From a virus, in IMG/VR virus record IMGVR_UViG_3300042691_006814, positions 1 to 24,282 of that record: a stretch of 24,282 nt of DNA. One strand, written 5' to 3'. The notes under the pieces were generated by a model, which was not told the origin of the DNA, did no database searches, and saw nothing but the letters and a program-made list of their open reading frames with translations. This document shows, one piece after another, positions 615 to 23,069 of this stretch (within the stretch, counting starts at the first letter, position 1; each line of letters begins with the position of its first letter). The position numbers and the translations under genes were made by a program.

Positions 615-2768
615 TTAAATCGCTGCTTCCCAAAACACTGTTACCGACGTTGAAGTTACATCAGCCCCTGACGAAGCCATATTTCCAACGCGAACTAAAA
701 TATTAGTAGCAGTAATGTTTTGAACTTGCGCAACGTACGTGTTATCCCCGCGAATAACAACATCAGCCCAGGTAGGTGTTGCGTAAATCCCATGAGCAAT
801 ATTGATGTTGCCATTACCGTCGGTTGTAGCCGTTGATGAACCGCGCTTGTAATTTTCTAGATCAGACAGACCGTAACAGTTTTCCGCTTTGATGCGAGAT
901 CCGCCAACATATGTTCCAGGCAAATCAAACGTATTTGAAGAGCCAATACAGTTTGAAAAGAGGATATCAACGCCAGTTAAGCCAACAACAACCCCACTGA
1001 ACATCCCGGTCGTTATTCCGCTAATTCTGGTGTTAGTAAACGTAATTCCAGAAGGAGCGTTTACAGGGTTGGCGATAAGGTACTGATGCCCACCACGAAT
1101 TTCACAATTGGATACGCGAAGCCCTTCAAGGTTTGCAATTGTCATTGCATAAGCATCAGTGCCAACTGATTGACGATGCTGAGCGTCAATGACGGTGTTG
1201 TCCAAAAACAAAATATTTCCTCGCATGTTCATTGAGGAAACATAACATTCGTTTACGTAACACTCCGTTGAAGTGTTTGATGCAACAGACAGAGAGCCGA
1301 CATCTACGTTATAAAAATGCGCAGTGCGATAGGCTGCGTTTGTTCCAACGCCTTGTGTTGTTGAGGCGTTTGGCGCAATCAGAACATAATCTTTAAAGAT
1401 AAAATCAAACTCACTGTGAATATCGCTTACAAGATTTACGTCAGCACTAAAGCCGTTTGAATCCATTGCAAACTCAGTGACGAGCCGAGCATTGCGCACA
1501 TAAACCCCGACAGCACGAGGAAGCACGGCTTCATCGCCTTCGCTGTAAACGTCCTCGTACAACAAGTTAAAACAAGGATGACTTGCAATCGTTGATACGT
1601 TGTCTTGTCCGCGAATGTTTTGAACAAAACAATTATAAGAAGCAGTATTGAAATCAATCGGTTGCCAGCATTCGATGCTTTCAACGTTTTTAAACGAAGT
1701 ATTTCTACTTCCGTTTGTTACGTTGACGCAATATCGAGCGCCGCTAAAAAACGAATCGTTAAACGTTGTGTTGTAGCTTTCGCCAACAAGCACTGGGTCA
1801 GGACCGCTGCCACGTCGTTTTTGCGGATCAATAGATCTCAGACCATTGACCACGCTGTTTGACAGGTAACGAATATCAATAACACGCCCGGTCCCGCCAC
1901 TAGATGAGGGGTACGTAACGGTTAAAGGCCCGTTAATCGTAAGGCTTACATTCTTGCGAACTGATAACGTAACCCCGTCAGTTGCAGAATCGTAGCCAAA
2001 CACAAGCGGTTCAGAAAAAGTGATGGTCGTTGAAGTTGTTGAAACGACCTTATGCACTTCTTTTTGCTTGTAGTTGTACCCAGTTTCGTATGTCTTTGTG
2101 CTGTCAATAAACACCAACATACCGGCTTGAATGCCAGTTGTGCTGTTTACAGTAATAGACAAAGCCCCTCTAGAAGAGGTGCCAGAAAAGGTTGGCGTAG
2201 CTACTTCTTTAGCTTGAAAAGATAGAGTGGTTGATGCGGCGTTATTGTTTAAAAAAGTTGCTCCGGCGCAATCAATTGTTAAATCGTTTTCAAGAACAAT
2301 AGTTTGGCTTCCCGTTGCCAACGAATAGACCCCGGGATCAACCACTAAGGTTTTGCCACTGGCTGCGTTAATTGCATTAACAATCGCCGTTGTATCGTTC
2401 GTTACGCCGTCCCCAACAGCGCCAAAGTCCTTAACCGATACGATATCTCGCAGCTTTGACTGAGCCGAACGCCCCGTGGCCCCAGTGCCGGACTGGAGAA
2501 ATCCGACAAGAGACGCTCCGTCATTGTCATCTAGTCTTGTGAACGCTACTTTTTCAGTATCAAGTTCAGCAATCGCAGTGGGTACAGTTGTTGCAGCAAT
2601 CCCACCAGAGGGTGTGTATGGGAGATCCCCCACTAACCCAGCGGCAAGCTGAGAACGAAGAATGCGTTTAGTCGTACCCTCACTCGTATCAAAAATAACG
2701 AGGTTGTCGTCATTGGCCGTACTAGCCCCGGCAATGGCGGTTAAGTCAGGAATACGCTTTCCGGGCAT
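615..2768 (-). CDS. Tailspike with pectate-lyase-type beta-helix
   Basis: This 717-aa protein has a head/tail-binding-like N-terminus (about residues 1-105), then the motif SVKDFGAVGDGVTNDTTAI at 111-129. That motif marks the start of the Pectate_lyase_3 / right-handed beta-helix fold of phage tailspikes. The middle (about 130-630) is rich in Asn, Val, Ile and Thr with no long hydrophobic helix, consistent with a parallel beta-helix. The C-terminus (about 640-717) looks like a small beta domain with a DGNGNINIAHG motif. Homologous spikes trimerise, bind surface polysaccharide and often cleave it. The catalytic acids cannot be assigned by eye, so enzymatic activity is inferred. The start is set by an AGGAG site just before the ATG. 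It is the penultimate visible gene of the late operon, followed by the fibre gene. Confidence 0.85.
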   Translation of the reverse strand: MPGKRIPDLTAIAGASTANDDNLVIFDTSEGTTKRILRSQLAAGLVGDLPYTPSGGIAATTVPTAIAELDTEKVAFTRLDDNDGASLVGFLQSGTGATGRSAQSKLRDIVSVKDFGAVGDGVTNDTTAIVNAINAASGKTLVVDPGVYSLATGSQTIVLENDLTIDCAGATFLNNNAASTTLSFQAKEVATPTFSGTSSRGALSITVNSTTGIQAGMLVFIDSTKTYETGYNYKQKEVHKVVSTTSTTITFSEPLVFGYDSATDGVTLSVRKNVSLTINGPLTVTYPSSSGGTGRVIDIRYLSNSVVNGLRSIDPQKRRGSGPDPVLVGESYNTTFNDSFFSGARYCVNVTNGSRNTSFKNVESIECWQPIDFNTASYNCFVQNIRGQDNVSTIASHPCFNLLYEDVYSEGDEAVLPRAVGVYVRNARLVTEFAMDSNGFSADVNLVSDIHSEFDFIFKDYVLIAPNASTTQGVGTNAAYRTAHFYNVDVGSLSVASNTSTECYVNECYVSSMNMRGNILFLDNTVIDAQHRQSVGTDAYAMTIANLEGLRVSNCEIRGGHQYLIANPVNAPSGITFTNTRISGITTGMFSGVVVGLTGVDILFSNCIGSSNTFDLPGTYVGGSRIKAENCYGLSDLENYKRGSSTATTDGNGNINIAHGIYATPTWADVVIRGDNTYVAQVQNITATNILVRVGNMASSGADVTSTSVTVFWEAAI

Positions 2769-15589: not shown

Positions 15590-16579
15590 ATGAGAGCGAC
15601 ACTGTTGAAAGACACCATCAAGTCCCTTTTCCCCATCAAGCGTACCGTCTGCATCGAGGGTTCCCCCGGTGGTGGCAAAACCACCATTGTGCATGAGGTT
15701 GCACAGGAACTTGGAGTCCCTTACATCGAGCGGCATATGCCCACCATGTTGGTGGAAGACTTCGGTGTTCCTGATCTCACCACAACCAACGACAAGTTTG
15801 CTTACAAACTGCCCGAGTGGTTCCCAGTCAAGGGCAAAGCGCCTGACGTTGGCATCCTGTGCTTCGATGACCGCAACCAAGCCGGTACTGACTTACAAAA
15901 GGTCTTCGCTAACATCTGCCAAGCCCGTACCTTGCACGGTCACACCCTGCCTGATGGCTGGATGGTAGTCTCGACTGGCAATAGGCAAGCTGACCGTGCC
16001 GGTGCTAACCGTGTGTTGTCCCATCTGCGTAACCGCGAGACTGTACTTGAACTGGATACCCATCTCGACGACTGGACACAGTGGGCTATTGACCATAACG
16101 TAAAGCCAGAAGTCATTAGCTTTATCCGTTTCCGTCCCGGCTTACTCCACGACTTTGATCCTCAGCGTGATCAGAACGCTACCCCTCGCTCATGGGTTGA
16201 GGGTGTGTCCGACGTGCTTGGTACGGTGCCTGCCGATGCTGAGTTCGAGTGCTTTAAGGGTGCCGTTGGTGAGGGTGCTGCCGCTGAGTTTGTGGGGTTT
16301 GTACGGATCTTCCGCAAGCTGCCCAACCCTGACGCTATCCTGCTCAATCCTACGACCAGTGACGTGCCCACCGACCCAGCGACTCTCTACGCTCTCAGTG
16401 GTGCCATTGCACAGCGTGCTACCGAGGGTAACTTCGAGCGTGTCTGCCAGTACTCGGAGCGCATGCCTCCCGAGTTCTCAGTGCTTACCATCAGCCATGC
16501 CGCCCGTCGTAACCCCGACCTTGCCAACACGCAAGCCTTTACCCAGTGGTCGATCAAGCACCAAGCTGTTTTGTTCTGA
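15590..16579 (+). CDS. MoxR/CobS-like AAA+ ATPase
   Basis: This 329-aa ATPase has Walker A GSPGGGKT at 24-31. Its Walker B is GILCFDDRNQA at 88-98, aligned with the LDEINRA box of MoxR ATPases but with Asp94 in place of the catalytic Glu. A sensor-1 STGNR has N131, and an arginine-finger-like SHLRNR has R147/R149. The C-terminal lid is about 190-329. MoxR ATPases work with a von Willebrand A partner to remodel protein targets or insert metals; that partner is encoded three genes downstream. Start: CTGGAGG six bases before ATG. It probably forms a hexamer in the cytoplasm. The client is unknown. Confidence 0.88.
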   Translation: MRATLLKDTIKSLFPIKRTVCIEGSPGGGKTTIVHEVAQELGVPYIERHMPTMLVEDFGVPDLTTTNDKFAYKLPEWFPVKGKAPDVGILCFDDRNQAGTDLQKVFANICQARTLHGHTLPDGWMVVSTGNRQADRAGANRVLSHLRNRETVLELDTHLDDWTQWAIDHNVKPEVISFIRFRPGLLHDFDPQRDQNATPRSWVEGVSDVLGTVPADAEFECFKGAVGEGAAAEFVGFVRIFRKLPNPDAILLNPTTSDVPTDPATLYALSGAIAQRATEGNFERVCQYSERMPPEFSVLTISHAARRNPDLANTQAFTQWSIKHQAVLF

Positions 16580-16580
16580 C

Positions 16581-16775
16581 ATGGACGACTTGGAGTGGAT
16601 TGACTACCTACGACGACGTGGTGTGGTGTCCCTCGCAGATAGGCAGTCCATTGCCCATATGCTCAGGAGCGAAATGCTCTCTGTCAGGATGCAAGGGCTT
16701 GCCTTCTGCAATCGGATGCGGGTTATTCACCCTGATCTGTGGATAACCTGCCTCACTGCAAAACGTATCTTGTAG
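16581..16775 (+). CDS. Small helical protein in the AAA+ cassette
   Basis: This 64-aa protein starts one base after the AAA+ stop, without a clear ribosome site, so it is probably translated by reinitiation. It is helical and basic (LEWIDYLRRRGVVSLADRQS...), with a C-terminal PDLWITCLTAKRIL. A repeated-helix adaptor binding the ATPase is a guess from position only. Family unknown. Confidence 0.6.
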   Translation: MDDLEWIDYLRRRGVVSLADRQSIAHMLRSEMLSVRMQGLAFCNRMRVIHPDLWITCLTAKRIL

Positions 16776-16830
16776 TTCTTGATCACAACCCTGCAACACA
16801 CCCATCAATATCTTTAGAGGAGTTTCGACT

Positions 16831-17679
16831 ATGAATCTCAATGACCGTGCCCTTTTGGTACAGCTTTCCATTAGCCAATGGGCGGCTCGCAAGTACGACA
16901 AACGTGCTTCCAAGGAAGTAACGACTGCACATGGTGCGGCATCTGCCGCTGGCCGCTTCAACAAGTCGCTGCTACCGATGGCCGACTTGCTGGATAACAT
17001 CCATAAAAAATCGACGCTGATCCGGCAGAGGTACTACGACAACACGTTGCCGTGGGGTATCGACGGCACTCAGATGCTACCCACCAGTAACTACCTACAG
17101 TTCATGACGGAGTTTCGCAAAGAGCGTGACGAGTGGAACCTGCTTGTGAATAACTTTGTGGATAACTACGACACGCTGAAGGATGATGCCAAGCGTATTC
17201 TCGGTAGCCTGTACGACCCCGCTGATTACCCATCGGCTGTGGATATTCGGGCCAAGTTCCACATGGATATGTCGGTATATCCCGTCCCCAGTACTGACTT
17301 CAGGGTAGCCATTGCATCGGAGGAACTCAGTCGTATCCAACAAGATGTTGAGCGTCGTGTGAAGGACGCAGAGCAGGCCGCGTTGCAAGAGGTATGGCAG
17401 CGGTTGTTTGATCGGGTCAAGCACATGGCGGAAAAACTTGCTGATCCGAAAGCGATTTTCCGTGACTCGATGATCGATAACGCTCGTGAAATCTGCGCCA
17501 TCCTGCCACGGCTTAACTTCAGTGACGACCCAAATCTGGAAGCGATGCGGCAGCAAGTCGAGGCGACACTACTCAAACATCCTGAAGCACTGCGCAACGA
17601 CCCTGATCTGCGTCGTGACACTGCCGCTGAGGCCAAGTCAATCATGGACAAAATGTCCGTCTTTATGGGAGCACAGTGA
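16831..17679 (+). CDS. DUF3150-like protein of the AAA+/VWA cassette
   Basis: This 282-aa protein has a helical N-terminus (ISQWAARKYDKRASKEV), then GRFNKSLLP, TLPWGIDGTQMLPTSNYLQF and KFHMDMSVYPVPSTDFRV (about residues 42-165). The second half is a long charged helix (about 165-282). This layout resembles DUF3150 proteins, which are encoded between CobS/MoxR-like ATPase and CobT/VWA-like genes in SXT-type elements and phages. The assignment is by memory of that pattern. An AGAGGAG site lies upstream. The TGA overlaps the ATG of the next gene by one base. It may be the substrate adaptor or a scaffold for the pair. Confidence 0.65.
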   Translation: MNLNDRALLVQLSISQWAARKYDKRASKEVTTAHGAASAAGRFNKSLLPMADLLDNIHKKSTLIRQRYYDNTLPWGIDGTQMLPTSNYLQFMTEFRKERDEWNLLVNNFVDNYDTLKDDAKRILGSLYDPADYPSAVDIRAKFHMDMSVYPVPSTDFRVAIASEELSRIQQDVERRVKDAEQAALQEVWQRLFDRVKHMAEKLADPKAIFRDSMIDNAREICAILPRLNFSDDPNLEAMRQQVEATLLKHPEALRNDPDLRRDTAAEAKSIMDKMSVFMGAQ

Positions 17680-17870
17680 TGAACAAGGAAGACATTTTCG
17701 ACGCTGATGGCACTGCCATACAGGCAGCGTATGACCTGATACAAGTGATTCTGAAGACCGACCCCGGTGTATACGACGACATCGCTGCGCCTGTCCTGTT
17801 GCTGCTACGTCAGCGACTTGGTAGTTCATGGCGCAACGTACCCAAGAAACGCAAACTAAGGAGTGTGTAA
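17679..17870 (+). CDS. Small helical protein before the VWA gene
   Basis: This 63-aa protein begins at ATG 17679, sharing a base with the previous stop, with GGGAG eight bases upstream; its own TAA shares a base with the VWA start. The acidic N-terminal half (MNKEDIFDADGTAIQAAYDLI) and basic C-terminus (WRNVPKKRKLRSV) suggest a small helical adaptor. Coupled translation with both neighbours suggests stoichiometric production. No known motif. Confidence 0.65.
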   Translation: MNKEDIFDADGTAIQAAYDLIQVILKTDPGVYDDIAAPVLLLLRQRLGSSWRNVPKKRKLRSV

Positions 17871-18982
17871 TGGACATGAACAAACTCAAAATCAAACTGG
17901 CGAAAGCTAAGACCTCGCTCGTGTTGGAGCATCCGTTTATCGGGACCATTGCGCTCAATATGCCGTTCGAGTTCGACGAGTCCATACCTACCGCTGCAAC
18001 CAACGGTAAGCGGATCAAGTTCAACCCGGCTTTTATCAACGACTTGTCAGATGACGAGGTTAAGTTCCTCGTTGCCCATGAGTGCCTGCACCCCATGCTG
18101 GAACATAACTATCGGCGCGGTGGCAGGCAACCTAGGCGGTGGAACATGGCCGCTGACTACGTTATCAACAAGCTGCTAACCGATGACAAGATCGGGCGTA
18201 TGCCCAAGGTCGGACTACATGACCCCAATATCTACGCTGCCGGTGGCGGTACGTCAGAGGGTATCTACAACATCTTGCCAGAACAGAACGAGGAGGACGG
18301 CACCGATGGTTTGCTCGACGACTGCGAGGACGGTGAGGGTGATGCCGCTGAGCAGGCACAGCAACAAGCAGAGTGGAAAGTGAATCTCGCTCAAGCTGCG
18401 CAAGCTGCCAAGATGATGGGCAAAATGTCTGCCAACATGCAACGGCTGGTCAATGAGGTGTTGCAACCCAAAGTCGATTGGCGTGACGTGCTTCAACGCT
18501 TCCTTGTCAAAGCCCGTACTGACCAGCGCAGTTTCGCCCGTGCTAACCGGCGATTTATCGGGCAAGGTGTCTACTTACCCAGTGTTACCGGCGAGGCAAT
18601 GGGCGAAGTACTCTTCGCTGTTGACTGTTCTGGGTCTATCGACCAGCATACTATCAACCAGTTTGCTGCGGAGATCGGCAAGGTTAAGGACGACCTTTGC
18701 CCAACACGTATACACGTGATGTACTTTGATTCTGAAGTCAGTCATGTGGAGTCTTATGCACCAGACGATGCGCTCGACATCCGCCCTCATGGTGGCGGTG
18801 GTACTGACTTTGCCCCGGTGTTCGACAAGATCACTGAACTGGGTATTGAGCCGGTGGCTATCGTGTTCCTCACTGACCTGTGCTGTCACAGTTTCGGTAC
18901 ACAGCCTGACGCACCTGTGCTTTGGGTAACTACGCACTCGGGCAGTGCGCCGTTCGGTGAGGTTGTAGAGATGAATATATAA
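17870..18982 (+). CDS. HExxH metallopeptidase-like/VWA protein (DUF2201 type)
   Basis: This 370-aa protein starts at ATG 17870 (AAGGAG six bases upstream), not at upstream in-frame codons. The N-terminal domain has HECLHPMLEH with a zinc-protease HExxH at 70-74, then RRWNMAADYVIN (90-100), typical of the DUF2201 putative metallopeptidase. An acidic, Gln-rich linker (138-168) follows. The C-terminal VWA domain (about 245-370) has the metal site DCSGS (D252, S254, S256), T312 in GGGGTDF and D336 in FLTD. All MIDAS positions appear intact. It is the expected partner of the AAA+ protein. The combination suggests ATP-driven, metal-dependent processing of a target protein; the target is unknown. 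Confidence 0.85.
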   Translation: MDMNKLKIKLAKAKTSLVLEHPFIGTIALNMPFEFDESIPTAATNGKRIKFNPAFINDLSDDEVKFLVAHECLHPMLEHNYRRGGRQPRRWNMAADYVINKLLTDDKIGRMPKVGLHDPNIYAAGGGTSEGIYNILPEQNEEDGTDGLLDDCEDGEGDAAEQAQQQAEWKVNLAQAAQAAKMMGKMSANMQRLVNEVLQPKVDWRDVLQRFLVKARTDQRSFARANRRFIGQGVYLPSVTGEAMGEVLFAVDCSGSIDQHTINQFAAEIGKVKDDLCPTRIHVMYFDSEVSHVESYAPDDALDIRPHGGGGTDFAPVFDKITELGIEPVAIVFLTDLCCHSFGTQPDAPVLWVTTHSGSAPFGEVVEMNI

Positions 18983-19001: not shown

Positions 19002-19238
19002 ATGGATTACAACGAGAAGGTTGTTGATTACTACGAGCGGATAACTTCAGTGCTTCGGATGAACAATTTGGCTGACGCTGATGACGACGAGTATGAAGCT
19101 GCTATTCATGCCCTCGTTACTGTTCTCGCGGTTCTTGGTGGTGGATCTAGTAAAACAAACCGGAAATACTGCAACGACATTACACAACATCTTTATACCG
19201 TGATGTCTGAATTAGACAGTAGTAAGACTCTTAACTAA
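19002..19238 (+). CDS. Small hypothetical protein
   Basis: This 78-aa acidic protein has GAGAGGGAG directly upstream of the ATG. It is helical: MDYNEKVVDYYERITSVLRM, then an alanine- and valine-rich helix (AAIHALVTVLAVLGGG, about residues 33-48), too short and too near charged residues to be a sure membrane span. It directly follows the VWA gene in the same transcript. Family unknown. Confidence 0.65.
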   Translation: MDYNEKVVDYYERITSVLRMNNLADADDDEYEAAIHALVTVLAVLGGGSSKTNRKYCNDITQHLYTVMSELDSSKTLN

Positions 19239-19248
19239 GGAAAATATA

Positions 19249-19878
19249 ATGGCGACCGTACGATTTTCACAAGCTCTCACTGACGATATTCTTGCTACTG
19301 CTTCCAAAAAACTACAGCCCGCAGTACAGCGGGTTTATGACAGCCGCCCCGATCACTCATGGGGGGATAAGATTTACGACAAGATATTTGCTGATGATCT
19401 ACACCTTGTCCGACAACTACCAACATACTGGTGTAAAGCAGTCGATAGTATCCTTGTTGATACCGTAGGTGGTTTAAACATTAACATGAAGTTTAATCTG
19501 ACTACCCCACAACTGTGGCCTGCATCAATGGTAGACAACGCAGTAGCTACTACAAATGTCTATTCTATCGGGCGGGTAGTTCTTAAAGATCACCTTGTGT
19601 GGGGTGAGTTACATGCCGCTGCATCAGAGTACAACAAACGGGTGACAGAAGTACTGCGTCGGCAGAGTGAGTTCGTTGCCAGTGTGAAAAAAATTATTAC
19701 GTCATATACCACTTTAGCTCCTGCACTGAAGGCATGGCCCCCACTGTGGGACTTGTTGGACCAAGATACTAAATCCCGACACAAAGAAGTTAAGTCTAGC
19801 CCCAAGGTAACGGCTACCCCAGATGTAGACTTTGACAAACTTACTGCACAGATTACTGCGGCAAAGTTAATCGTATGA
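19249..19878 (+). CDS. Hypothetical phage protein (faintly Nmad5-like)
   Basis: This 209-aa protein has an AAGGAAA site. The N-terminal half is alpha/beta (VRQLPTYWCKAVDSILVD). The C-terminal half is a long helix followed by ASVKKIITSYTTLAPALKAWPPLWDLLD (about 145-172), a segment I associate with phage proteins near MoxR/VWA genes. The overall arrangement faintly recalls Nmad5, a domain named for association with nucleotide modification, but the match is weak. A DNA-modification accessory role is therefore only a hint. It overlaps the next gene by four bases (ATGA). Confidence 0.65.
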   Translation: MATVRFSQALTDDILATASKKLQPAVQRVYDSRPDHSWGDKIYDKIFADDLHLVRQLPTYWCKAVDSILVDTVGGLNINMKFNLTTPQLWPASMVDNAVATTNVYSIGRVVLKDHLVWGELHAAASEYNKRVTEVLRRQSEFVASVKKIITSYTTLAPALKAWPPLWDLLDQDTKSRHKEVKSSPKVTATPDVDFDKLTAQITAAKLIV

Positions 19879-20760: not shown

Positions 20761-21195
20761 ATGCCTAAGATTACTAAAAAACAACGTGTTATTGATCACT
20801 TCATCAAGAGTCCACTGGCTACACCCAAGTCCGTGTCCGAGAAATTCAGGATGGCGCTACCCACTGTGTATACCTTGCGTAAGCAGGCGCTCGCTTCCAT
20901 CCATACACCCCCGCCCCCGGCTGATGAGCCAGTGGTTGAGTACGGGTGGATAAACGAAGGGGAGCAGGCCAATCTGTCGCAGGTAGGCGGGGATCATTAC
21001 AAGAACATGGGTGTCGAGCCGTGGGATGTGGTCGATACATGGCCCATCGAGCAACGTATTGGTGCATACCGTGCCGGGGCTTTGAAGTATCTGATGCGGA
21101 TGGGTAGGAAGGACGCCGATGACTTGGAGATTTCCAAGAGTAAGCATTACCTTCAGAAACTTCTTGAAGTACTCGAAGAAAATTCGGGGCAGTGA
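20761..21195 (+). CDS. DUF3310 protein with N-terminal helix-turn-helix-like region
   Basis: This 144-aa protein has AGGAG five bases before the ATG. The C-terminal half (about residues 74-140) is a clear DUF3310: VGGDHYKNMGVEPWDVV, then AYRAGALKYLMRMGRK-D and SKHYLQKLLEVLE. DUF3310 proteins are phage-encoded and often annotated as gp1.7-like nucleotide kinases, so a nucleotide-metabolism role next to the polymerase makes sense. The N-terminal 45 residues (KKQRVIDHFIKSPLATPKSVSEKF...PTVYTLRKQAL) look like a helix-turn-helix, an extra not needed by the catalytic part; DNA binding is inferred. Confidence 0.82.
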   Translation: MPKITKKQRVIDHFIKSPLATPKSVSEKFRMALPTVYTLRKQALASIHTPPPPADEPVVEYGWINEGEQANLSQVGGDHYKNMGVEPWDVVDTWPIEQRIGAYRAGALKYLMRMGRKDADDLEISKSKHYLQKLLEVLEENSGQ

Positions 21196-21200
21196 CAGCG

Positions 21201-23069
21201 ATGGACATCGTAACCATCGACTTTGAAACCTATTACGACAAGGAGTTCTCCCTGTCGAAGATGACCACCGAGGCGTACATCCGTGACCCAAGGTTCGAGG
21301 TTATCGGGGTGGGCATCAAGGTTAACGACTACCCGACCGACTGGTACAGCGGGGACAACCCCGGCAAGTTTATCAAGTCACTGGACTATAGCAAGCGGGC
21401 TATCCTGTGCCACAACACAGCGTTCGACGGTGCCATCTTGTCATGGTTGTTCGGTATCCGTCCGAGACTGTGGCTGGACACACTGAGTATGGCTCGTCCG
21501 ACACACTCGCTTACTGTTGGTGGGTCGCTTGCGAAGTTGGCGGCGTACTACAGCCTCGGTAAAAAAGGTGATGAGGTCGTGGCTGCAATGGGTAAGCGGA
21601 GAAAGGACTTCACTGAGGCTGATCTTGCACAGTACGGGCGGTACTGCATCAACGACGTAGACCTGACAAAACAATTATTCGACAAGCTCAAGGTAGGTTT
21701 CCCATCCAGCGAGTTGTTGGTGATTGATCAGACACTACGTATGTACACGGAGCCGGTGATCGAACTCGACGTACCACTCTTGGAGAAACATCTTGAGGAA
21801 GTGCGTAGTCGCAAACGCTCTTTGATCCAAGACCTGAGCGTGAGTGCCGGTGGTGAGGTAGCGGTGCACAACATGCTCATGTCCAATGAGAAGTTTGCTG
21901 CGTACCTTACATGTCTCGGTGTGGAGCCGCCGCGCAAGGTAAGCCCCACTACTGGCAAGGAAACATGGGCGTTCGCCAAGACTGACAAGGGTATGACGGA
22001 CTTACTGGATCACCCGGACGAGCGTGTTCAAGCTGCGGTAGCGGCTCGCCTTGGTGTGAAGTCAACCATTGAGGAAACACGTACGGAGTCGCTCATTGGT
22101 GTGGCAGGAAGGGGTAAGCTGCCCATCATGCTGAACTACTACGGTGCCCACACGGGCCGCTTTAGTGGGGGCGACAAGCTCAACCTACAGAACCTCCCTG
22201 CTCGTGGTGGTAGCAACGCAATCAGGCGCAGTCTGAAGGCACCGGAGGGGCACAGCCTCATCGCATCTGACTCATCGCAGATCGAAGCTAGGATGGTGGC
22301 GTACATCGCAGGGCAGGATGATCTGGTGGAAGCGTTCAGTGAGAAGCGGGATGTGTACTCCGAGTTCGCCACTGAAATTTATGGCCGCAAGATCACCAAG
22401 TCTGACAAGGTCGAACGCTTTGTTGGGAAGTGCGGGATTTTGAGCTTAGGATACGGAGCCGGTGCGGCTAAGTACCGTGACATGCTGAGGATTCAGGGAA
22501 ATGTGACCATTGACCTGAACGAAGCCGAACGCATCGTGCGAATCTATCGCAGCAAGAACTTCAGGATCGCACAGCTTTGGCAGAAGTGTGGACAGGCGCT
22601 GACCGCGATGGTCAACGGCGGCAGTGGCAGCATCCATGACGTACTAACATACGATTCACTGGGTATCAAGTTACCCAACAAGCTGCGCATCCAGTACCCC
22701 GCACTGCGTGCCACGACGAACGGCTTTGAATACATCGCTGACCCAAGGCAGTATCAGAAGATAGTCGCACAGCGCGTGCTTGGTGAGACTGCTGACGTGC
22801 CGTGGGTACGCATCTACGGTGGGAAGGTGACGGAGAACCTGATCCAAGCCCTCGCCGCTATCGTTATCCGTGAGCAGATGGCCGCAATCGGACAGCATTA
22901 CCACGTTGCATTCCAAGTTCACGACGAGATCATCATCACCGCGCCGGACAGCAAGGCAGCACAGGCTGAGGCAAAGCTGGTGGAGATCATGTCAACACCA
23001 CCCAAGTGGGCACCCGGTCTGCCGGTTGCATGTGAGTCCGGTTCGGCAAAAAACTACGGAGATACATGA
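21201..23069 (+). CDS. Family A DNA polymerase with 3'-5' exonuclease
   Basis: This is a 622-aa replicative polymerase. The N-terminal exonuclease has TIDFETYY (D7, E9), CHNTAFD (D76) and YCINDVD (D152). The polymerase has motif A ASDSSQIEAR (D357), motif B RFVGKCGILSLGYGAG (R406, K410, L414, Y418) and motif C VHDEI (D575, E576). Leu414 aligns with E. coli Pol I Phe762. No 5' nuclease domain is present, as usual in phage enzymes of this size. ATG 21201 is preferred, giving the MDIVTIDFETYY start; GTG 21192, overlapping the previous stop, is an alternative. It should copy the phage genome; helicase and primase are not in view. Confidence 0.93.
   Translation: MDIVTIDFETYYDKEFSLSKMTTEAYIRDPRFEVIGVGIKVNDYPTDWYSGDNPGKFIKSLDYSKRAILCHNTAFDGAILSWLFGIRPRLWLDTLSMARPTHSLTVGGSLAKLAAYYSLGKKGDEVVAAMGKRRKDFTEADLAQYGRYCINDVDLTKQLFDKLKVGFPSSELLVIDQTLRMYTEPVIELDVPLLEKHLEEVRSRKRSLIQDLSVSAGGEVAVHNMLMSNEKFAAYLTCLGVEPPRKVSPTTGKETWAFAKTDKGMTDLLDHPDERVQAAVAARLGVKSTIEETRTESLIGVAGRGKLPIMLNYYGAHTGRFSGGDKLNLQNLPARGGSNAIRRSLKAPEGHSLIASDSSQIEARMVAYIAGQDDLVEAFSEKRDVYSEFATEIYGRKITKSDKVERFVGKCGILSLGYGAGAAKYRDMLRIQGNVTIDLNEAERIVRIYRSKNFRIAQLWQKCGQALTAMVNGGSGSIHDVLTYDSLGIKLPNKLRIQYPALRATTNGFEYIADPRQYQKIVAQRVLGETADVPWVRIYGGKVTENLIQALAAIVIREQMAAIGQHYHVAFQVHDEIIITAPDSKAAQAEAKLVEIMSTPPKWAPGLPVACESGSAKNYGDT

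What the first reader, a model, noticed from the sequence alone, without database searches (positions are those of the whole stretch)
15590..18982. Phage-borne AAA+ / DUF3150-like / metallopeptidase-VWA cassette with two embedded small genes
Five genes in one direction, with one-base or ATGA-type stop-start contacts at three of four junctions (the fourth gap is 55 bases), encode a MoxR/CobS-like ATPase, a 64-aa helical protein, a DUF3150-like protein, a 63-aa protein and a HExxH-VWA protein with intact metal sites. Seen: the motifs and the overlaps. Known: MoxR ATPases pair with VWA proteins (RavA-ViaA, CobS-CobT logic), and similar trios occur in mobile elements without an assigned function. 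Inference: it is an ATP-driven protein-processing machine acting on a host or defence target during infection. The two small proteins may be adaptors specific to this system.
Basis: partly seen in the sequence, partly recalled or inferred. Interest (0 to 1): 0.82.

Follow-up and report, generated by a model that had tools for sequence, protein, structure and literature searches.

The report
Phage three-part AAA+/protease-like/DUF3150 machine
Next to its DNA-replication genes this uncultured phage carries a conserved three-protein machine (an ATP-driven ring protein, a protease-like adhesion protein and a helical partner); it is a variant of a two-protein machine found in hundreds of phages whose target is still unknown, and the two small genes inside it are only passengers.

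Summary
Three genes form a conserved module: a MoxR-like ATPase, a divergent DUF3150 protein, and a DUF2201 protein (HExxHxxxxH zincin-like plus MIDAS-bearing VWA domain). All three occur in 23 of 23 contigs picked by the neighbouring DNA polymerase, under strong purifying selection. The two small genes are passengers (5 and 8 related loci; not detected in the closest relative). The ATPase/DUF2201 pair without DUF3150 is a widespread, unexplained phage pair (N4 gp24/gp25). DUF3150 is added in this lineage, a cyanophage and rare bacterial loci; canonical DUF3150 genes sit beside CbbQ-type ATPases and CobT-like VWA proteins. The module is core and lies in the replication region, which argues against a dispensable weapon aimed at a host defence. 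Best reading: an ATP-driven client-remodelling machine, possibly a protease, serving phage replication; client unknown. The published CobST reading fits poorly (no CobT match, intact HExxH, no CobN found). New variant of a known kind.

The parts
15590..16579 (+). MoxR-like AAA+ ATPase, 329 aa (PHROG 1297; Walker A GSPGGGKT, Walker B FDDRNQA, sensor-1 GN, sensor-2 TPRSW)
   Evidence: phrog_1297 E 5e-72; A3 invariant columns; closest solved relatives by profile: Midasin, E 1e-18
16581..16775 (+). small accessory ORF 1, 64 aa; found in 5 related loci; passenger, not part of the core
   Evidence: no family match or in Pfam/PHROGs
16831..17679 (+). middle subunit (MID), 282 aa, divergent DUF3150-superfamily protein, mostly helical
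   Evidence: A1; profile-profile E 1.6e-4 to 2.7e-5; AF2 mean pLDDT 81
17679..17870 (+). small accessory ORF 2, 63 aa; found in 8 related loci; passenger
17870..18982 (+). DUF2201 protein, 370 aa: N-terminal zincin-like domain (HExxHxxxxH: H70, E71, H74, H79) and C-terminal VWA domain with complete MIDAS (D252, S254, S256, T312, D336)
   Evidence: PF13203 162 bits, PF09967 99 bits; motifs in 97/97 distinct relatives
19002..19238 (+). small gene downstream of the VWA gene, 78 aa; found in 50 related loci, so more conserved than the two embedded ones; possible associate
19249..19878 (+). conserved downstream neighbour, 209 aa, weak Nmad5 similarity; context gene, membership in the module not claimed
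   Evidence: 139 loci; 10 of 12 relatives match Nmad5, best E 6.5e-5
21192..23069 (+). family A DNA polymerase, used as an independent anchor for the co-occurrence test

Best explanation
The module encodes a MoxR-like AAA+ / VWA remodelling machine with a protease-like subunit; in this phage lineage it has three subunits. Proposed working: the ATPase forms a ring, probably a hexamer (inferred from its relatives); the VWA domain of the DUF2201 protein docks on the ring and holds a client through its MIDAS metal; ATP turnover twists or stretches the linker between the VWA and the zincin-like domain, as shown for NorQ-NorD; the HExxHxxxxH domain then grips or cuts the client; the DUF3150 protein is a constant third subunit, most likely a client or scaffold adaptor. 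The client most likely belongs to the phage replication programme (a phage or host replication, repair or transcription protein), because the module is core and sits in the replication region. Shown: gene conservation, order, intact sites, folds by prediction, position. Inferred: ring, complex formation, client, proteolysis.
For: All three genes in 23/23 contigs chosen by DNA polymerase with at least 8 kb upstream and in 82 distinct complete loci. dN/dS 0.045-0.094. Complete HExxHxxxxH and MIDAS motifs in 97/97 distinct relatives and in 10 divergent phage or bacterial homologues. Pfam DUF2201_N + DUF2201. Predicted structure: VWA fold Z 12.8, rmsd 2.5, 128 aligned, with NorD of a solved NorQD complex among weaker matches; the N-terminal half matches selecase metallopeptidase MJ1213, 25-26% identity over 72-77 columns. 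ATPase profile closest to Midasin, itself a ring ATPase with a MIDAS domain. NorQ-NorD twisting mechanism: PMC13036017. Replication context: PD-(D/E)XK nuclease, SNF2 helicase and DUF927 protein downstream of the polymerase. vWFA gene listed among 14 N4-like core genes: PMC10783043. Canonical DUF3150 genes also sit beside CbbQ-type ATPases and CobT-like VWA genes.
Against: No experiment on any member was found; complex formation was not tested (no multimer prediction available). Walker B carries DD in this lineage, so ATP turnover could be slow or absent. Genome position is only a weak guide to the client. Other phages keep the pair without the DUF3150 subunit, so MID is not needed for the basic machine. 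The zincin domain may be purely structural.
Confidence: 0.55

Rival explanations
1. [quoted passage not shown]
For: Published proposal for virus-encoded ATPase/VWA pairs; the architecture, ring ATPase + MIDAS VWA, is that of CobS-CobT; canonical DUF3150 loci do carry CobT-like VWA proteins.
Against: The window VWA protein has no CobT or CobT_C match at E<=1 while VWA neighbours of canonical DUF3150 do; HExxHxxxxH is intact in 97/97 relatives, which CobT does not explain; no CobN and no ribonucleotide reductase large subunit match in 31 lineage records, some of them incomplete. That the paper's genes are the same family as these is probable but was not checked.
Confidence: 0.12
2. Host take-over or counter-defence protease: the machine destroys or disarms a host or defence protein.
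For: Zincin and ATPase motifs; MoxR-vWA ternary systems are central to bacterial conflict systems (PMC7159879); distribution in phages and rare bacterial loci.
Against: Core and slowly evolving in the lineage, unlike typical anti-defence genes; placed among replication genes; no convincing PADLOC match (best E 6e-4, P-loop only).
Confidence: 0.15
3. Virion assembly chaperone, as reported for the MoxR ATPase of Acidianus two-tailed virus.
For: Viral precedent for a MoxR-type ATPase acting in tail development, cited in PMC9964418.
Against: The structural and packaging genes of the window lie together on the opposite strand; the module is next to replication genes.
Confidence: 0.08
4. Replication-linked proteolysis comparable to p97 + SPRTN/Wss1: the AAA+ ring feeds DNA-bound proteins to a SprT/M48-like zincin.
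For: Weak SprT-like (E 0.04) and M48 (E 0.02) matches of the N-terminal domain; replication-module position; ParB and Prim-Pol genes near the Niastella trio.
Against: Family matches are below curated cut-offs; no DNA-binding part recognised; zincin folds are generic.
Confidence: 0.08

Closest known systems
Phage N4 gp24/gp25-type pair (PHROG 1297 ATPase + PHROG 1314, labelled 'HNH endonuclease')
   Same: Same two families, adjacent or near-adjacent, close upstream of DNA polymerase in several phages
   Different: Whole-genome searches of six phages with the pair found no DUF3150 protein; ATPase Walker B is DE in the five compared, DD here
NorQ-NorD and other MoxR/VWA chaperone pairs (CbbQ-CbbO, RavA-ViaA)
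   Same: MoxR-type ATPase + MIDAS VWA protein; works-like model (PMC13036017)
   Different: The partner here carries an HExxHxxxxH zincin-like domain; no client gene of those pairs was seen nearby
CbbQ-type ATPase + DUF3150 + CobT-like VWA gene sets of bacterial genomes
   Same: Three-gene set with a DUF3150 member beside the ATPase and the VWA gene
   Different: VWA protein is CobT-like, 545-731 aa, and matches CobT/VWA families; here it is DUF2201, 370 aa
Trio of Synechococcus phage MinM2, Niastella vici and Cupriavidus necator SHC 2-3
   Same: ATPase, MID homologue (29-34% identity) and DUF2201 protein together
   Different: Gene order ATPase-VWA-MID in Niastella; DE Walker B in MinM2; Cupriavidus carries two copies
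MoxR-vWA ternary conflict systems (VMAP, iSTAND, FtsH, beta-propeller; PMC7159879)
   Same: MoxR + VWA + third component
   Different: Third component here is DUF3150-like; none of those components was matched in MID

Membership tests
DUF2201 (PF13203 + PF09967) | Score above curated cut-offs of both domains | tested here: met
   162 vs 23.2 bits and 99 vs 26.4 bits
DUF2201 (PF13203 + PF09967) | Zincin motif and complete MIDAS conserved in relatives | tested here: met
   97/97 distinct relatives; 10 divergent homologues in the alignment
Phage ATPase family PHROG 1297 | Full-length profile match | tested here: met
   E 5e-72, residues 6-327
MoxR AAA+ family | Walker A, sensor 1 and sensor 2 present | tested here: met
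   Invariant or nearly invariant in A3
MoxR AAA+ family | Canonical Walker B with catalytic Glu (DE) | tested here: not met
   FDDRNQA in all lineage ATPases that cover the motif except L154; hence 'MoxR-like'. Related ATPases of phages with the pair only do have DE
MoxR AAA+ family | Helix-2 insert (clade-defining according to PMC7159879) | not tested
   ATPase structure not predicted; both prediction jobs went to MID and the VWA protein
DUF3150 (PF11348) | Score above curated cut-off | tested here: inconclusive
   Window protein: no hit. 26/45 relatives hit weakly; Niastella homologue 25.3 vs 24.9 bits; profile-profile probability 50-74%, E 1.6e-4 and 2.7e-5
Cobaltochelatase CobS/CobT | CobT / CobT_C match of the VWA protein | tested here: not met
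   No match at E<=1; VWA neighbours of canonical DUF3150 do match
Cobaltochelatase CobS/CobT | CobN subunit available | not testable with these tools
   Not found in 31 phage records; host unknown
MoxR-vWA ternary conflict systems | VMAP, iSTAND, FtsH or beta-propeller component | tested here: inconclusive
   MID has no such Pfam match; other genes around were scanned only in part
Known anti-phage defence proteins (PADLOC) | Specific full-length match | tested here: not met
   Only short P-loop or partial matches, E>=6e-4
NorQ-NorD-like AAA+/VWA complex | Physical complex with finger-in-pore docking | not testable with these tools
   No multimer prediction available

The most novel reading that the evidence does not exclude
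DUF3150 is the general third subunit of a class of MoxR-VWA machines shared by mobile elements and phages with two interchangeable VWA partners (CobT-like or DUF2201 zincin-like), and the DUF2201 form is an ATP-driven protease that phages need for replication.
Probability: 0.2. Interest if true: 0.75.

Novelty: new variant of a known kind. Interest (0 to 1): 0.47.

Why it matters
The ATPase/DUF2201 pair is found in hundreds of isolated phages, including N4-like ones whose vWFA gene is listed as core, yet its function is open, its PHROGs label (HNH endonuclease) looks wrong, and a published reading (CobST) conflicts with the conserved zincin site. The three-subunit version supplies a constant partner and a clear set of residues to mutate (K30, D94, H70, E71, D252), and laboratory phages such as N4 carry the two-gene form, so a long-standing unknown becomes directly testable.

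Tried and rejected
DNA-level search of phage records with the cassette: no match. PHROG label 'HNH endonuclease' for the VWA protein: rejected, the protein matches DUF2201_N and DUF2201 and no HNH family. Fold of MID: no PDB match at E<=0.001; VIA-align rows (best Z 12.0, four-helix bundles over residues 181-281) are at the level the tool calls common for helical bundles and were not used. Small genes as conserved adaptors: rejected after iterative profile searches (5 and 8 loci). DD Walker B as a marker of the three-gene form: tempting (window lineage, Niastella, Cupriavidus) but broken by MinM2 and L154, both DE. B12 link through ribonucleotide reductase or CobN: none found in 31 records. 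MID in bacterial genomes at large: only the seed genomes in samples of 398 and 395. A regular expression miscounted Walker B in 13 rows by matching an upstream stretch; the printed segments show FDDRNQA in those rows. Papers on DUF3150: none in the library. Papers on DUF2201: four, none with a function.
Full report
Observation. The window is a whole IMG/VR record of 24,282 bases. Five + strand ORFs lie at 15590-16579, 16581-16775, 16831-17679, 17679-17870 and 17870-18982. Junctions are a one-base gap, a 55-base gap, TGATG and TAATG. The rest of the record fits a tailed phage: tail spike, major head protein, head-tail adaptor and terminase on the minus strand, DNA polymerase A on the plus strand. 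The nearest isolates found are Rhizobium phages of the RHph_TM3_14A group (major capsid 53% identity; polymerase 36%).

Families. The last protein matches DUF2201_N and DUF2201 far above cut-off. The ATPase matches PHROG 1297 (E 5e-72) and the VWA protein PHROG 1314 (E 2e-101, labelled HNH endonuclease). The two small proteins match nothing convincingly. The middle protein (MID) has no hit above cut-off; 26 of 45 relatives match DUF3150 weakly, a Niastella homologue passes the cut-off, the MinM2 homologue is annotated DUF3150, and a profile of six canonical DUF3150 proteins aligns with the MID profile over 233-237 columns, including the N-terminal strand with the conserved W and R (E 1.6e-4 to 2.7e-5, probability 50-74%). 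I call it a divergent DUF3150-superfamily protein: likely, not secure.

Do the genes travel together? Searches with MID and VWA gave 154 viral loci besides the window's own; of the 155 counted, 153 hold MID and 145 the ATPase, and the loci without it end close to MID or VWA. These loci were chosen by the module, so I repeated the test with an independent anchor, the DNA polymerase: all 23 contigs with 8 kb or more upstream carry all three genes. Some contigs may be near-duplicates, so 23 is an upper bound on independent lineages. The order ATPase-MID-VWA holds throughout the loci. The spacing varies (10 to 848 bases between ATPase and MID, -8 to 805 between MID and VWA) and holds 39 clusters of small ORFs, some of which may be chance ORFs. 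Small gene 1 has relatives in 5 loci and small gene 2 in 8, and neither is detected in L002, the closest relative (90-95% protein identity). They are passengers. A small gene just downstream of the VWA gene (19002-19238) has relatives in 50 loci, and a 209-aa Nmad5-like gene follows in 139.

Sites. HExxHxxxxH, DxSGS, GGGGT and LTD occur in 97 of 97 distinct VWA proteins, and the zincin and MIDAS residues also in ten divergent homologues from Thermus, Vibrio, Rhizobium, Synechococcus and Pseudomonas phages and from Niastella and Cupriavidus. Walker B is FDDRNQA in the lineage, DD also in Niastella and Cupriavidus, and DE in five phages with the pair only, in MinM2 and in L154. dN/dS between window and L002 is 0.045, 0.066 and 0.094 for ATPase, MID and VWA.

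Structure. The predicted DUF2201 protein (mean pLDDT 82.5) has a C-terminal VWA fold (best Z 12.8, rmsd 2.5, 128 aligned). Its N-terminal half resembles selecase MJ1213, a small metallopeptidase, by sequence profile (E 0.004) and by Foldseek (25-26% identity over 72-77 columns, E 0.025-0.058). NorD from a NorQD complex is among the weaker VWA matches (9qhe_G). MID (pLDDT 81) is mostly helical with no significant PDB match.

Wider distribution. The DUF2201 protein has 530 matching phage records and the ATPase 702. In N4-like phages they are gp24 and gp25, function unknown (PMC2784036), and the vWFA gene is listed among 14 N4-like core genes (PMC10783043). Whole-genome searches of six phages with the pair found no MID or DUF3150. 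The three-gene form occurs in MinM2, in Niastella vici and twice in Cupriavidus necator SHC 2-3; the Niastella locus lies near ParB and Prim-Pol genes and one Cupriavidus locus near a recombination-directionality-factor-like gene, which suggests mobile elements. In 398 and 395 sampled genomes of the two phyla only the seed genomes matched. Canonical DUF3150 genes in genomes of the order of Cupriavidus sit beside AAA_5/CbbQ_C ATPases and CobT-like or other VWA proteins in the loci whose neighbours were scanned, though not every locus showed both. So DUF3150 recurs as a third gene beside MoxR-type ATPases with two different kinds of VWA partner.

Mechanism. Established elsewhere: MoxR ATPases act with VWA proteins, and NorQ-NorD is proposed to twist and stretch a linker to open its client (PMC13036017). 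Inferred here: the phage ATPase does the same with the DUF2201 protein, the MIDAS holds the client and the zincin half grips or cuts it, with MID as third subunit. Position close to DNA polymerase, nuclease, helicase and DUF927 genes (from the related contig L207) and core status point to the replication programme as the place of action. No step of this has been shown by experiment, and DD in Walker B leaves the rate of ATP turnover open.

Rivals. The CobST reading (PMC8651126) is weakened by the lack of any CobT match, by the conserved zincin site and by the absence of CobN and of the ribonucleotide reductase large subunit in 31 records. The host-target or counter-defence reading is possible but not favoured, because the module is core and slowly evolving. 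Virion assembly has a viral precedent (cited in PMC9964418) but the position does not fit. A p97/SPRTN-like role is attractive and unproven.

Verdict. A real, conserved module; new variant of a known kind; two of the five reported genes do not belong to it; the client is unknown.

Noticed in passing
window 17870-18982 and PHROG 1314: PHROG 1314 is labelled 'HNH endonuclease' but the protein is a DUF2201 metallopeptidase-like/VWA protein; the label is repeated in many phage annotations.
   Followed up: partly
window 15863-15883 (Walker B): Walker B reads FDDRNQA, DD in place of DE, fixed in the lineage and shared with the bacterial trios, but DE in MinM2, L154 and phages with the pair only.
   Followed up: partly
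window 19249-19878: 209-aa gene with weak similarity to Nmad5 (nucleotide modification associated domain 5) in 10 of 12 relatives, conserved downstream of the module.
   Followed up: partly
window 19002-19238: 78-aa gene right after the VWA gene, with relatives in 50 loci; a better candidate for an associated small protein than the two embedded ones.
   Followed up: partly
L165 and L185 (Cupriavidus necator SHC 2-3): Two copies of the full trio in one bacterial genome, one near a recombination-directionality-factor-like gene.
   Followed up: no
phage records OQ594354.1, OL906435.1, PP438419.1: Three cyanophage records of identical length (65,014 bases) and identical match scores are filed under different hosts; they may be one phage genome.
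   Followed up: no
L085, L098, L100, L109 (small gene 2): Small gene 2 is 97% identical in protein where the flanking MID and VWA proteins are only about 80% identical, which hints at recent exchange (nucleotide identity 93-95%).
   Followed up: partly
window 615-2768 (-): Tail-spike-like gene with partial similarity to several tail spike PHROGs, one annotated with colanic acid degradation.
   Followed up: no
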